Positions 14,040 to 29,406 of a stretch of 64,000 bases of DNA are shown piece by piece; within the stretch, counting starts at the first letter, position 1; every line of letters begins with the position of its first letter. The translations under genes and the position numbers were made by a program. Source of the stretch: Candidatus Gastranaerophilales bacterium (GTDB taxonomy: Bacteria; Cyanobacteriota; Vampirovibrionia; Gastranaerophilales; Gastranaerophilaceae); contig CALVEH010000001.1 in assembly GCA_944326545.1 (NCBI GenBank), positions 73,422-137,421 on the forward strand, in the 5' to 3' direction. The notes under the pieces were generated by a model. It was not told the DNA's origin, made no database searches, and was given only the letters and a program-made list of their open reading frames with translations.

Positions 14040-15155
14040 GTGGATAAACCTGAAGTAATTTTTGATATAAACGGATTTTTAAAAAAAGCTGTAGCTGAAA
14101 ACGTTTCAGACGTACATTTAAGGATAGATGAAGTACCTGTTGTAAGAAAAGACGGGAAGATTATAAAAACAAACTATCCTGTTATTAAGGAAAAAGATAT
14201 TTCTCATGTATTAAATATCGTATTGCCAAAATATTTGAGAACAAAAGTTCAATCAGCTTTTGACTTGGACTTTTCATACGAAATTAAAGGCGTTTCCAGA
14301 TTCAGAATCAACATGGCACGCCAAATGGGGAATACTTCTCTTGTATTCAGAATTATCCCTTATGAAATACCGACTTTCCAACAATTAAAATTACCGCCTT
14401 CTTTAAACATGTTTTCTAAATTTAATAGTGGAATTGTTCTTGTAACAGGTCCTACAGGTAGCGGTAAATCAACAACTATTGCTTCTTTGATTGATTTGAT
14501 AAACAAAAACGAAAGAAAACACATCATTACAATCGAAGACCCTATTGAGTTTATCTACTCAAATAAAAACTGTATTATTACTCAAAGACAGGTAGAAATT
14601 GACACATTGTCATTCCCGGATGGTGTAAAATATGCACTAAGACAAGACCCTGATGTAATTCTTATTGGTGAAATTAGAGACTTAGAAACACTTTCAAGTG
14701 CGATGAAAGCAGCAGAAACAGGCCACCTTGTTATTGCATCTTTGCACACAAACGATGCAATCCAAACAGTAAACAGAATTGTGGGTATGTTTGATCCTAA
14801 AGACAGAGAAGGAGTAAGAAAACAACTCGCAGAAACACTCAAGGCCTGTGTTGCTCAAAAACTTATACCTCTAAAAAGCGGTCACGGTCGTATACCTGCT
14901 TGCGAAATCATGGTTGTTACACCAACTATTAAAGACTTTATCATTAAAGACGAATTGGAACAAATATACGACCTTGTTAAAAAAGGTTCTTATAACGACA
15001 TGATTACGATGAACATGTCATTATTCCAATTAATAAAAGAAGATCTCATCTCTAAAGATGTAGCAATTGATGCAAGTGACAACAAAGTCGAAATCGAACA
15101 AATGTTGAGGGGAGCTTACCACGGAACTGTCGATAAATTTGATATTCAGTTCTAG
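14040..15155 (+). CDS. pilT: Type IV pilus retraction ATPase, PilT family (copy 1)
   Basis: This 371-residue secretion-type ATPase carries an N-terminal PAS-like domain (SDVHLRIDEVPVVRKDGKII). The core has Walker A GPTGSGKST (about 139-147), the Asp box TIEDPIEF, Walker B DVILIGEIRDLET and the His box GHLVIASLHTNDA. The conserved AIRNLIRE motif of classical PilT is not evident. The C-terminus has instead a PTIKDFIIKDELEQIYDLV segment in the matching place. PilT powers pilus retraction in twitching, adhesion and DNA uptake. The GTG start is supported by AGGAGGAG 6 bases upstream. It leads the plus-strand run into recO. A second PilT is encoded at 28339. Confidence 0.92.
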   Translation: MDKPEVIFDINGFLKKAVAENVSDVHLRIDEVPVVRKDGKIIKTNYPVIKEKDISHVLNIVLPKYLRTKVQSAFDLDFSYEIKGVSRFRINMARQMGNTSLVFRIIPYEIPTFQQLKLPPSLNMFSKFNSGIVLVTGPTGSGKSTTIASLIDLINKNERKHIITIEDPIEFIYSNKNCIITQRQVEIDTLSFPDGVKYALRQDPDVILIGEIRDLETLSSAMKAAETGHLVIASLHTNDAIQTVNRIVGMFDPKDREGVRKQLAETLKACVAQKLIPLKSGHGRIPACEIMVVTPTIKDFIIKDELEQIYDLVKKGSYNDMITMNMSLFQLIKEDLISKDVAIDASDNKVEIEQMLRGAYHGTVDKFDIQF

Positions 15156-23268: not shown

Positions 23269-23424
23269 CTATTTTATAGCCACAAGTCTTGATGATACAC
23301 CCATATCAGAATTAATCATCTTTGCACTGGCTATAGCCATAGAGCGTCTTTTTTTTGCACCTCTTAGCAAAAATGCAACTCCGTCACTTATATTACTTGT
23401 TGGTTTTGATAATTTCTTTAACAT
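23269..23424 (-). CDS. Candidate small basic protein, 51 residues
   Basis: The frame from the ATG at 23424 encodes MLKKLSKPTSNISDGVAF followed by a basic stretch (LLRGAKKRRSMAIASAKM) and GVSSRLVAIK. AAGGGA lies 6 bases upstream. It sits alone between two plus-strand units. The composition is protein-like and not a shadow of another gene. An earlier start at 23454 is in frame but lacks a ribosome site. Function unknown. Confidence 0.45.
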   Translation of the reverse strand: MLKKLSKPTSNISDGVAFLLRGAKKRRSMAIASAKMINSDMGVSSRLVAIK

Positions 23425-23623: not shown

Positions 23624-24520
23624 ATGTTTGATTTTTCAGTATTTTTAAACCCGGTTATATTGGCAATTATTGTTTGTTTTATCGGTGTTGTTGCGTATTT
23701 TGTTTCTAAAGTTCAGTACATCAACATGTCATTGATAGGTTTGACTAATATATTGAAAAGCTTTAGAAAGGGTAATATCGTTTACAGATTCAAAGAGCTT
23801 GATGACATGTTTTTAAAAAGCCCTTTTATCTCAAACTATTGGGTAGAATTTAAAAACACGCTCGTTTTTAACGAAGGAATTTCCCTAAAAGGTGCTGCAC
23901 CTGAAAATTCTTCAATCCAGTGTACAATGGATTCTTCATACTTTTTTAACGAAGAAACTCTTATCAACAGCAAACTTAACTACAAATTTATATCAGCTGT
24001 GCCAACAATTTTAACAGGTCTTGGCCCATTGTTCACATTTATGCACATTGCAATAGCATTTTCTAAAGTTAACTTTGCAACCCAAGAAGCAACAATAGCA
24101 TCTGTATCATCACTGCTCGCGTCAATGAAAGTTGCGGCAATGATTTCTGTTGTTGCAGTTGGTACATCAATTTTATTTATGGTTATTGAAAGAATTTTGT
24201 ACAAAAATATGTGCAAAACTCCATTAAGCGCTTTCCAATTAGAAATGAACAAGTTGTTTGACAATATAACATCTGAAAAATTCCTTGTAGAACTTTTAAG
24301 AGAATCAAAATTGCAAAACAGCGTACTCAACCAAACCTTTACAACTATGCCAATGCAGATGAAAGCCGCATTTGACAAAAGTTTTAAAGAGACACTTGTT
24401 CCATACTTGGATAATCTTATATTTTCTGTTAACAAACTTCAAGACAACATAAAAAAGAATAATTCAGGAGCCAAAAACATCTTAGATAATATTTTTGGCA
24501 CAAACAATGATGATGAGTAG
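23624..24520 (+). CDS. MotA/TolQ/ExbB-family proton channel protein, ZorA-like
   Basis: This 298-residue protein has one N-terminal membrane helix (about 10-28) and a cytoplasmic stretch with ELDDMFLKSPFISNYW. Two further helices follow: about 121-150, AVPTILTGLGPLFTFMHIAI; and about 165-188, KVAAMISVVAVGTSILFMVI. That three-helix topology with a GLG-containing second helix is the ExbB/TolQ/ZorA plan, unlike four-helix MotA. The cytoplasmic tail (about 190-298) is helical but far shorter than the long tail of anti-phage ZorA. It reads straight into an OmpA/MotB-type partner, so together they form a proton-driven channel unit. No flagellar, TolA/TonB or ZorC/ZorD genes are nearby. Confidence 0.72.
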   Translation: MFDFSVFLNPVILAIIVCFIGVVAYFVSKVQYINMSLIGLTNILKSFRKGNIVYRFKELDDMFLKSPFISNYWVEFKNTLVFNEGISLKGAAPENSSIQCTMDSSYFFNEETLINSKLNYKFISAVPTILTGLGPLFTFMHIAIAFSKVNFATQEATIASVSSLLASMKVAAMISVVAVGTSILFMVIERILYKNMCKTPLSAFQLEMNKLFDNITSEKFLVELLRESKLQNSVLNQTFTTMPMQMKAAFDKSFKETLVPYLDNLIFSVNKLQDNIKKNNSGAKNILDNIFGTNNDDE

Positions 24521-24528
24521 TAAATATA

Positions 24529-25218
24529 ATGAAATATATTAAGTATAAAACAGATATACAAAGTGGTGGAGACGAAAACGTTTTTTGGGTTACAATGAGT
24601 GACCTTTTATTGGGCCTTGTTGTTGTGTTTCTTGTACTTTTTGTATTTGCGATAACTGGTTATACTCAAGCAAAAGTTTCTGAACAAGAAAAAAGATACA
24701 AAGTAACAGAAAAAATAGCAGAAGAACTCAAAAAGAACAACATAAATGTTGATGCCGACAAATTCTCAGGCAGAATAAAAATTTCTGACTTGGAACTTTT
24801 TGAACTAAACAGTTGGGAACTTTCACCAAAAGGCAGAGAGTACATGGCAAAATTTGTGCCCGTGTATATTAACGCAGTTATGAAAGATCCAAAAGTAAGA
24901 AAAAATATTACACAAATAATCATAGAAGGTCATACAGACTCTCAAACTTTTGCAGGTGCAAAATCAGAAGAAGAAAAATATTACAAAAACATGGAACTCA
25001 GCTTAAAACGTGCAAACAGCGTTGCAAAATACATAATATTTGCTGACTTTGACGGCAAAAAAGATTACCAAGAAGATTTATTTAAAATAATTTCTGTTGA
25101 AGGTAAAGGCCCGTCAAACCCTGTAATTGTTAACGGCAAAGAAGATTATTCACAAAGCAGACGTGTTGAATTGCAGGTTATGTTCAAAGAAAACTTTATG
25201 CTGCAAGACAAAGATTAG
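24529..25218 (+). CDS. OmpA/MotB-family protein, ZorB-like partner
   Basis: This 229-residue protein has a single N-terminal membrane helix whose entry, VTMSDLLLGLVVVFL (about 21-35), carries Asp25. That is the expected proton-carrying aspartate of MotB/ZorB/ExbD-type subunits. A short linker leads to a C-terminal OmpA-like peptidoglycan-binding domain with IIIEGHTDS (about 126-134), LSLKRANSVAKYI and QSRRVELQV. It starts 8 bases after the channel gene, and both are probably co-transcribed. The protein anchors the complex to the wall. What it drives is unknown: flagellar and Tol-Pal genes are absent here. Confidence 0.78.
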   Translation: MKYIKYKTDIQSGGDENVFWVTMSDLLLGLVVVFLVLFVFAITGYTQAKVSEQEKRYKVTEKIAEELKKNNINVDADKFSGRIKISDLELFELNSWELSPKGREYMAKFVPVYINAVMKDPKVRKNITQIIIEGHTDSQTFAGAKSEEEKYYKNMELSLKRANSVAKYIIFADFDGKKDYQEDLFKIISVEGKGPSNPVIVNGKEDYSQSRRVELQVMFKENFMLQDKD

Positions 25219-28338: not shown

Positions 28339-29406
28339 TTACATACCGATTAATCTTCTCAATTCATCAGGACGGCTTGTTTTAGACAATGCATCCTCAG
28401 CAGAGATAAGATTTTTCTTATAAAGGTTAGCAAGTGCAGTTTCCAAAGTCTGCATACCATGTTGCGCACCTGTTTGAATAGCTGAATACATTTGAGAAGT
28501 TTTACCTTCACGGATAAGGTTGGCAATCGCACCGTTAACGATCATGATTTCTTGTGCCATTACACGACCTTTCTTTTCACCTGTTTCTGTCAAACGAGGC
28601 AAAAGTGTTTGTGAAAATACCGCACAAAGTGAGTTAGACAACATGATACGGATCTGTTGTTGTTGACCTTGTGGGAATACGTCGATAATACGGTCGATAG
28701 TTTGGCTTGCAGATGAGGTGTGAAGTGTACCCATTACCAAGTGGCCTGTTTCCGCCGCTGTAATAGCAAGAGAAATAGTCTCAAGGTCACGCAACTCACC
28801 TACCAGAATGATATCAGGGTCTTCACGAAGTGCTGATTTAAGAGCGTTAGCAAAAGAACGTGTATCTTGTCCCAACTCTCTTTGGTGAACAACACTTTGT
28901 TTTGACTTGTGCACAAATTCGACAGGGTCTTCGATTGTCAAAATGTGTTCGTTTCTGTTTTCGTTGATATAGTCAATCATCGTTGCAAGAGTAGTAGATT
29001 TACCTGAACCTGTAGGACCGGTTACAAGAATCAATCCTCTTGGCTTTTCTGTAATTTTTCTTACGATTGGAGGAAGACCAAGTTGATCAAATGAAGGGCA
29101 GCTTGTGTTGATGGTTCTGAATGCAGCTGCATAAGTGTTGTTGTTTTTATACACGTTAACACGGAATCTGCCTAAACCATGGATACCATAAGAAAGGTCA
29201 AGCTCCCAATCTTGTTCTAATTTTCTTCTTTGTTCGTTATTCAAAATTGGAAATATGAGTGTTTCAACATTTTCTGCTGTCAACAATTCATGATTAGTTC
29301 TAATTAACTTACCGTCTATACGGAATACGGGGGGAAGATTGGCTGAAATGTGAATATCGCTGGCACCTTGGCCGACAGCGTCTTCCAATAATTCTTCAAT
29401 TAACAT
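28339..29406 (-). CDS. pilT: Type IV pilus retraction ATPase, PilT/PilU family (copy 2)
   Basis: The 355-residue protein has the standard order. SDIHISANLPPVFRIDGKLI is at the N-terminus, with Walker A GPTGSGKSTT near 129-138. TIEDPVEFVH, Walker B DIILVGELRDLET and His box GHLVMGTLHTSSA follow. AIANLIREGKTSQMYS is the AIRNLIRE-type motif diagnostic of PilT retraction motors. It is closer to textbook PilT than the copy at 14040. Upstream AGGAG is 10 bases before the ATG. It is a single-gene unit facing the matrixin gene. Confidence 0.94.
   Translation of the reverse strand: MLIEELLEDAVGQGASDIHISANLPPVFRIDGKLIRTNHELLTAENVETLIFPILNNEQRRKLEQDWELDLSYGIHGLGRFRVNVYKNNNTYAAAFRTINTSCPSFDQLGLPPIVRKITEKPRGLILVTGPTGSGKSTTLATMIDYINENRNEHILTIEDPVEFVHKSKQSVVHQRELGQDTRSFANALKSALREDPDIILVGELRDLETISLAITAAETGHLVMGTLHTSSASQTIDRIIDVFPQGQQQQIRIMLSNSLCAVFSQTLLPRLTETGEKKGRVMAQEIMIVNGAIANLIREGKTSQMYSAIQTGAQHGMQTLETALANLYKKNLISAEDALSKTSRPDELRRLIGM

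What the first reader, a model, noticed from the sequence alone, without database searches (positions are those of the whole stretch)
23624..25218. Isolated proton-channel/OmpA pair resembling ZorAB, without Zorya partners or flagella
The first gene has three membrane helices with a GLG-containing second helix; the second has an N-terminal helix with Asp25 and an OmpA domain. This is the energy-transducing unit of Zorya, Tol, Ton and flagellar motors. No tolA, tonB, zorC, zorD or flagellar gene is next to it. The cytoplasmic tail of the channel protein is much shorter than in ZorA. It could power gliding, envelope constriction or an undescribed defence or transport system.
Basis: partly seen in the sequence, partly recalled or inferred. 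Interest (0 to 1): 0.6.

Follow-up and report, generated by a model that had tools for sequence, protein, structure and literature searches.

The report
Zorya-like motor lacking its defence partners
A whole family of gut bacteria (Gastranaerophilaceae, non-photosynthetic relatives of cyanobacteria) carries, as a normal inherited gene pair, a cut-down version of the ion-driven motor of the Zorya anti-phage system, without the tail or effector proteins that Zorya needs; this suggests that such motors also do a non-defence job that nobody has described.

Summary
The pair is real. ORF1 (23624-24520, 298 aa) and ORF2 (24529-25218, 229 aa) form a two-gene operon in a Candidatus Gastranaerophilales genome. 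Sequence profiles, predicted folds and trees place them with ZorA/ZorB, not with MotAB, ExbBD or TolQR. The ion-path residues (ORF1 T138, S175; ORF2 D25) and the peptidoglycan-binding motifs are kept. ORF1 lacks almost the whole ZorA rod: its tail is 57-70 aa in 40 homologues, against 304-445 aa in canonical relatives. ZorC was not found, ZorD is represented only by generic SNF2 helicases, and no effector is linked. The short pair occurs in 141 of 142 sampled genomes of 25 genera and in none of 50 genomes of eight other genera. A marker tree needs only four changes to explain this, so it is an old, mainly vertically inherited core gene. It is independent of flagella, which this genome has, with two separate MotAB pairs. 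Best reading: a Zorya-type 5:2 motor used for a constitutive envelope-linked function, signalling through a short conserved tail. The function is inferred, not shown. A defence role with unlinked partners is not excluded. Phyla other than Cyanobacteriota were searched only for close relatives.

The parts
23624..24520 (+). ORF1, short ZorA-like pentamer (channel) subunit, 298 aa
   Evidence: ZorA1 profiles E 7e-26 and 8e-24; PDB ZorA 2e-16; Foldseek ZorA 1e-6; VIA Z 15
23651..23758 (+). ORF1 helix 10-45 containing TM1
   Evidence: predicted model, mean pLDDT 65
23846..23848 (+). ORF1 E75, equals E. coli ZorA E86 (calcium-site residue named in a PDB title); the partner E89 is N78 here
   Evidence: E75 invariant
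23981..24064 (+). ORF1 TM2 (120-147) with GLG at 24017-24025 and T138 at 24035-24037 (E. coli ZorA T147)
   Evidence: T138 invariant in short and long forms
24083..24268 (+). ORF1 TM3 and its cytoplasmic extension (154-215), S175 at 24146-24148 (E. coli ZorA S184)
   Evidence: S175 invariant
24311..24517 (+). short cytoplasmic tail of ORF1 (residues 230-298), in place of the 300-450 residue ZorA rod
   Evidence: tail 57-70 aa in 40 short homologues, 304-445 in six long ones
24383..24448 (+). conserved tail segment (residues 254-275, includes LVPYLDNLIFSVNKL), possible partner-binding or bundling site
   Evidence: mean identity 0.66 against 0.47 and 0.38 in the flanking tail segments
24529..25218 (+). 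ORF2, ZorB-like peptidoglycan-binding axle subunit, 229 aa
   Evidence: PADLOC ZorB1 E 1e-53, 180 bits; PDB ZorB
24601..24603 (+). ORF2 Asp25, the presumed ion-carrying residue (ZorB D24/D21 in PMC11890865)
   Evidence: GAC codon; invariant
24796..25146 (+). OmpA / peptidoglycan-binding domain of ORF2 (residues 90-206)
   Evidence: Pfam OmpA 4e-11; H135, T136, D137, R161, R211, R212 invariant

Best explanation
ORF1 and ORF2 are the two subunits of a ZorAB-type ion-driven motor (probably five ORF1 around two ORF2) that has been a vertically inherited core component of most Gastranaerophilaceae since early in the family. Likely working: ORF2 dimers grip peptidoglycan through the OmpA domain; ions pass between ORF2 Asp25 and the ORF1 ring residues T138 and S175 and turn or tension the ORF1 pentamer; a short conserved tail, not the long Zorya rod, passes that motion or state to an unlinked partner. 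The likely role is a constitutive, cell-wall-coupled one (sensing or applying force at the inner membrane and wall), not effector-based phage defence. Shown here by computation: kinship to ZorAB, residue conservation, short tail, missing partners, core vertical inheritance, independence from flagella. Inferred: 5:2 assembly, ion flow, rotation, the tail partner and the biological role.
For: ZorA/ZorB profile matches and PDB matches. Short ORF1 from 24 genera is one clade (100/100), grouped with long ZorA1-like proteins (86/87), with own MotA x2 and ExbB outside; short ORF2 is one clade (97/97). ORF2 homologue in 141 of 142 genomes of 25 genera, 0 of 50 in eight genera (counted); ORF1 in 17 of 18 good genomes of the genus. 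Four state changes on an ExbB/ExbD marker tree against 11.1 when shuffled; distances of ORF1 and ORF2 follow that marker (Mantel r 0.60 and 0.56) and each other (r 0.87). Purifying selection. Ion-path and wall-binding residues kept. Tail 57-70 aa with a conserved segment. No ZorC hit, only generic SNF2 proteins in place of ZorD. Canonical ZorABCD seen in one family genome, which lacks the short pair. No match in phage records or in a close-relative scan of viral contigs. In published work, deleting ZorA 237-696 or mutating ZorB D24 abolishes Zorya I defence (PMC11890865).
Against: No experiment and no identified tail partner. Eight genera do without the pair, so it is not essential in the family. 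The ORF1 model is of moderate quality (pLDDT 65) and no complex could be modelled. Unlinked effectors were not excluded; the empty ZorC search had no positive control genome in that run. A core gene can still serve defence. Whether the short tail is a loss or the older state is unresolved.
Confidence: 0.5

Rival explanations
1. A minimal Zorya-like anti-phage system: the motor senses wall damage and recruits an effector encoded elsewhere through the short tail.
For: Closest relatives are ZorA and ZorB; residues needed for Zorya sensing (Asp, wall-binding motifs) are invariant; the tail has a conserved segment.
Against: Core and near-universal in 25 genera with a vertical pattern, unlike the sporadic canonical Zorya of the same family. 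ZorAB alone and ZorA lacking 237-696 give no defence in E. coli (PMC11890865); ZorAB described as not sufficient (PMC8565338). Neighbours in the sampled loci are changing housekeeping genes.
Confidence: 0.25
2. A substitute for Tol-Pal that helps outer-membrane constriction or envelope integrity at division.
For: All three OmpA-domain proteins of this genome are motor B subunits, so no Pal was found; several related genera have no OmpA-domain match at all. In the window and its nearest relatives the pair lies beside a cell-wall/division cluster.
Against: That neighbourhood is not kept in other genera. ORF2 is an inner-membrane anchored wall binder and no TolA-like spanning protein is linked. 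A TonB-ExbB-ExbD-ExbD operon is present here and MotA_ExbB proteins are found in 107 of 108 family genomes. Eight genera lack the pair.
Confidence: 0.12
3. A power unit for the second, non-flagellar FliF/FliH/FlhA/FliI export apparatus that the family carries.
For: Such an operon exists in this genome and a second FlhA-like gene is found through the family, including genera without flagellar FlhA.
Against: It is also present in genera without the pair. The gene after FliF has no recognisable FliG match. The tree shows kinship to ZorA, not to a stator.
Confidence: 0.05
4. An auxiliary flagellar stator (third MotAB).
For: This genome has flagellar genes and ORF2 is MotB-like in overall design.
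Against: Two true MotAB pairs already exist. The pair is conserved in genera without flagellar FlhA and missing in some with it. ORF1 is outside MotA in the tree and does not reach Pfam MotA_ExbB.
Confidence: 0.03

Closest known systems
Zorya type I ZorAB (PDB 8QYD, 8VVN)
   Same: ZorA-type N-terminal region and three membrane helices; GLG and Thr/Ser ring; ZorB Asp; OmpA wall-binding domain; adjacent A-B gene order
   Different: tail 57-70 aa in place of 300-450 aa; no ZorC or ZorD; core and vertically inherited, not sporadic; scores below all NCBIfam ZorA/ZorB cut-offs
Zorya type II ZorAB (PDB 8VVI)
   Same: ZorB fold is the top structural match of ORF2 (VIA Z 17)
   Different: type II ZorA lacks the long N-terminal region and pairs with ZorE; the order-level relative G281 (L135) has such an arrangement, with a 400 aa ZorA and a 275 aa gene downstream read here as ZorE-like
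MotAB flagellar stator
   Same: 5:2 motor logic; B subunit with TM helix, Asp and OmpA domain
   Different: ORF1 is not in the MotA clade and has three rather than four predicted TM helices; occurs without flagellar genes; own MotAB pairs are separate
ExbBD-TonB / TolQR-A
   Same: three-helix A subunit; structural match at lower level (VIA Z about 10 against 15 for ZorA)
   Different: B subunit carries an OmpA domain, not an ExbD/TolR domain; no TonB/TolA linked; the genome has its own TonB-ExbBDD operon

Membership tests
Zorya type I | ZorA and ZorB homology | tested here: met
   PADLOC ZorA1 7e-26, ZorB1 1e-53; trees. Scores are below the curated NCBIfam cut-offs
Zorya type I | long cytoplasmic ZorA tail, required for defence (PMC11890865) | tested here: not met
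   tail 57-70 aa in 40 homologues against 304-445 aa in six canonical relatives
Zorya type I | ZorC | tested here: not met
   none adjacent; no hit in own genome with Klebsiella ZorC (no positive control in that run)
Zorya type I | ZorD | tested here: not met
   only two unlinked generic SNF2 proteins, with SWIM or DUF3670 domains
Zorya type I | ion-carrying Asp and Ser/Thr ring | tested here: met
   D25 invariant; T138 and S175 invariant
Zorya type I | sporadic, mobile, defence-island distribution | tested here: not met
   core gene in 25 genera, four changes on the marker tree
Zorya type I | anti-phage activity | not testable with these tools
   needs a plaque assay
MotAB stator | A subunit inside the MotA clade | tested here: not met
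   own MotA x2 and ExbB split off at 100/98; no Pfam MotA_ExbB hit
MotAB stator | co-occurrence with flagella | tested here: not met
   all four combinations of pair and flagellar FlhA occur
ExbBD / TolQR | ExbD/TolR-type B subunit | tested here: not met
   ORF2 has an OmpA domain; its fold matches ZorB and MotB-type domains
ExbBD / TolQR | linked TonB or TolA | tested here: not met
   none recognised next to the pair in the window and sampled loci; the TonB-type gene is with the separate ExbBDD operon
5:2 ion-driven motor (fold class) | 5:2 stoichiometry and ion conduction | not testable with these tools
   only single-chain models were possible

The most novel reading that the evidence does not exclude
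A separate class of ion-driven motor: a Zorya-type motor with a non-defence, housekeeping function in a whole bacterial family, either domesticated from Zorya by loss of tail and effectors or descended from the ancestor from which Zorya was recruited.
Probability: 0.5. Interest if true: 0.75.

Novelty: new variant of a known kind. Interest (0 to 1): 0.55.

Why it matters
ZorAB motors are described only as parts of phage defence in the papers consulted. A tail-less, effector-less ZorAB kept as a core gene across a bacterial family would show that the motor has, or had, another job, and would help to explain how defence systems and housekeeping machines exchange parts. It also offers a natural minimal motor for testing what the ZorA tail does, and warns that PADLOC-type ZorA/ZorB hits in Gastranaerophilales are not by themselves evidence of Zorya defence.

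Tried and rejected
MotAB/ExbBD/TolQR membership: rejected by tree, profile and fold. Flagellar role: rejected by distribution. DUF711 (UPF0210) as third component: it follows ORF2 with a gap of -26 to +3 bp in 14 of the loci sampled outside the genus, but is found in 180 of 192 family genomes including most without the pair and lies elsewhere in this genome, so it is probably an operon neighbour. A small unknown protein (about 110 aa) downstream in those genera has tandem copies and was not tested further. Second OmpA-domain proteins in genera without flagellar FlhA look like a secreted relict near a peptidase-like gene and are unlinked. Searches of phages, viral contigs (close relatives only) and plasmids (only canonical ZorA1) gave no short form. 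Structure: only single chains could be predicted; the ORF1 model is mediocre. MotB placement in the ORF2 tree is unstable because of long branches. The genome-contig scan finds close relatives only, so short pairs in other phyla are not excluded.

Full report
Observation. ORF1 has three long membrane helices with GLG in the second; ORF2 has Asp25 in its N-terminal helix and an OmpA domain. Relatives named in public records identify the organism as Candidatus Gastranaerophilales.

Identity. ORF1 has no significant Pfam match, not even MotA_ExbB, but matches the N-terminal part of ZorA1 in NCBIfam (8e-24) and PADLOC (7e-26). ORF2 matches full-length ZorB1 (1e-53, 180 bits). All NCBIfam scores lie below the curated cut-offs. 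By sequence the solved structures that match ORF1 are ZorA entries (best 2e-16) and the best matches of ORF2 are ZorB entries. By fold, ORF1 is closest to ZorA (Foldseek 1e-6; Z 15 against about 10 for TolQ and ExbB) and ORF2 to ZorB (Z 17). The ORF1 model is moderate (pLDDT 65), so sequence and tree carry more weight.

Residues. Aligned with E. coli ZorA, ORF1 keeps T147 (T138), S184 (S175) and E86 (E75); E89 is N78. E86/E89 are named as the calcium site in a PDB title; the ion-path role of T147/S184 is from memory, while PMC11890865 describes a Ser/Thr ring around the ZorB Asp. In ORF2, D25, H135, T136, D137, R161, R211 and R212 are invariant in 17 sequences.

Tail. Beyond the region shared with E. 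coli ZorA (ORF1 residue 229), 40 short homologues have 57-70 residues; six long homologues from the same class have 304-445. The segment 254-275 is better conserved than its flanks, so the short tail looks functional and not like a broken remnant. Deleting residues 237-696 of ZorA removes Zorya I defence (PMC11890865).

Partners. ZorC gave no hit in this genome (without a positive control in that run). ZorD hit only two housekeeping-type SNF2 proteins. Neighbours in other genera change and include SecA-, UvrC- and DUF711-like genes (by reading; DUF711 also). DUF711 follows ORF2 closely in many genera but is present almost everywhere in the family.

Distribution. In the genus, 17 of 18 good genomes have ORF1, each once. 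In 192 family genomes I count a strong ORF2 homologue in 141 of 142 genomes of 25 genera and in none of 50 genomes of eight genera. Outside the family, the phylum search listed only longer ZorA proteins, about 400-750 aa; several loci inspected have canonical or Zorya-like gene order. One family genome, G288, carries a canonical ZorABCD-like operon and lacks the short pair: it is a control for what defence Zorya looks like in this family.

Trees. Thirty short ORF1 proteins form one clade (100/100) grouped with class-level ZorA1 and Klebsiella ZorA (86/87); the genome's MotA and ExbB proteins split off at 100/98. Short ORF2 proteins form one clade (97/97), though MotB is unstable in that tree. 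A marker tree of ExbB and two ExbD proteins needs four changes of the ZorAB state (shuffled mean 11.1): one at the split of g17, g18, g22, g24 and g27 from the rest, and three further ones at g16, g20 and g25. Distances of ORF1 and ORF2 follow the marker (Mantel r 0.60 and 0.56) and each other (r 0.87). This is the pattern of mainly vertical inheritance with losses. The independent-pairs test had too few pairs to give a significant result either way.

Flagella and envelope. Flagellar FlhA and the ZorAB pair occur in all four combinations, so it is not a flagellar stator. This genome has two MotAB pairs and a TonB-ExbBDD operon besides and no Pal was found: its only OmpA-domain proteins are the three motor B subunits.

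Conclusion. I judge this a ZorAB-type motor serving a constitutive, wall-coupled role, at 0.5. Defence with unlinked partners stays at 0.25. Direction of change (loss of the tail, or an ancestral short form) is open. The mBio survey of stators left ZorAB out of its phylogeny as a remote homologue (PMC12505986), and searches of the held open-access library turned up no report of a stand-alone short ZorAB.

Noticed in passing
window 23272-23424, minus strand: A 51-codon ORF (MLKKLSKPTSNISDGVAFLLRGAKKRRSMAIASAKMINSDMGVSSRLVAIK), 92-100% identical in near relatives; it stays with the DivIC/FtsB-type gene, not with the motor pair. Probably a real small protein.
   Followed up: partly
L095 1811-8777 (own genome G000:C4 about 147810-154776): A second, non-flagellar FliF / unknown / FliH / FlhA / FliI operon, below the FlhA and SctV cut-offs; a second FlhA-like gene occurs in family genomes with and without flagellar FlhA.
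   Followed up: partly
L079 1395-8640 (G288): A canonical ZorA-ZorB-ZorC-ZorD-like operon in a Gastranaerophilaceae genome that lacks the short pair.
   Followed up: yes
L057-L062, L065-L068, L071, L072, L075, L077: A DUF711 gene directly after the ORF2 homologue, mostly overlapping it; in several genera small, partly tandem unknown proteins of about 110 aa follow.
   Followed up: partly
L148-L155: Genera without flagellar FlhA carry a secreted-looking OmpA-domain protein of 163-185 aa beside a peptidase-like and a sigma-factor-like gene; possibly a MotB relict.
   Followed up: partly
window 14040-15155 and 28339-29406: Two PilT-like ATPase genes lie on either side of the pair (read from the sequence only).
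   Followed up: no
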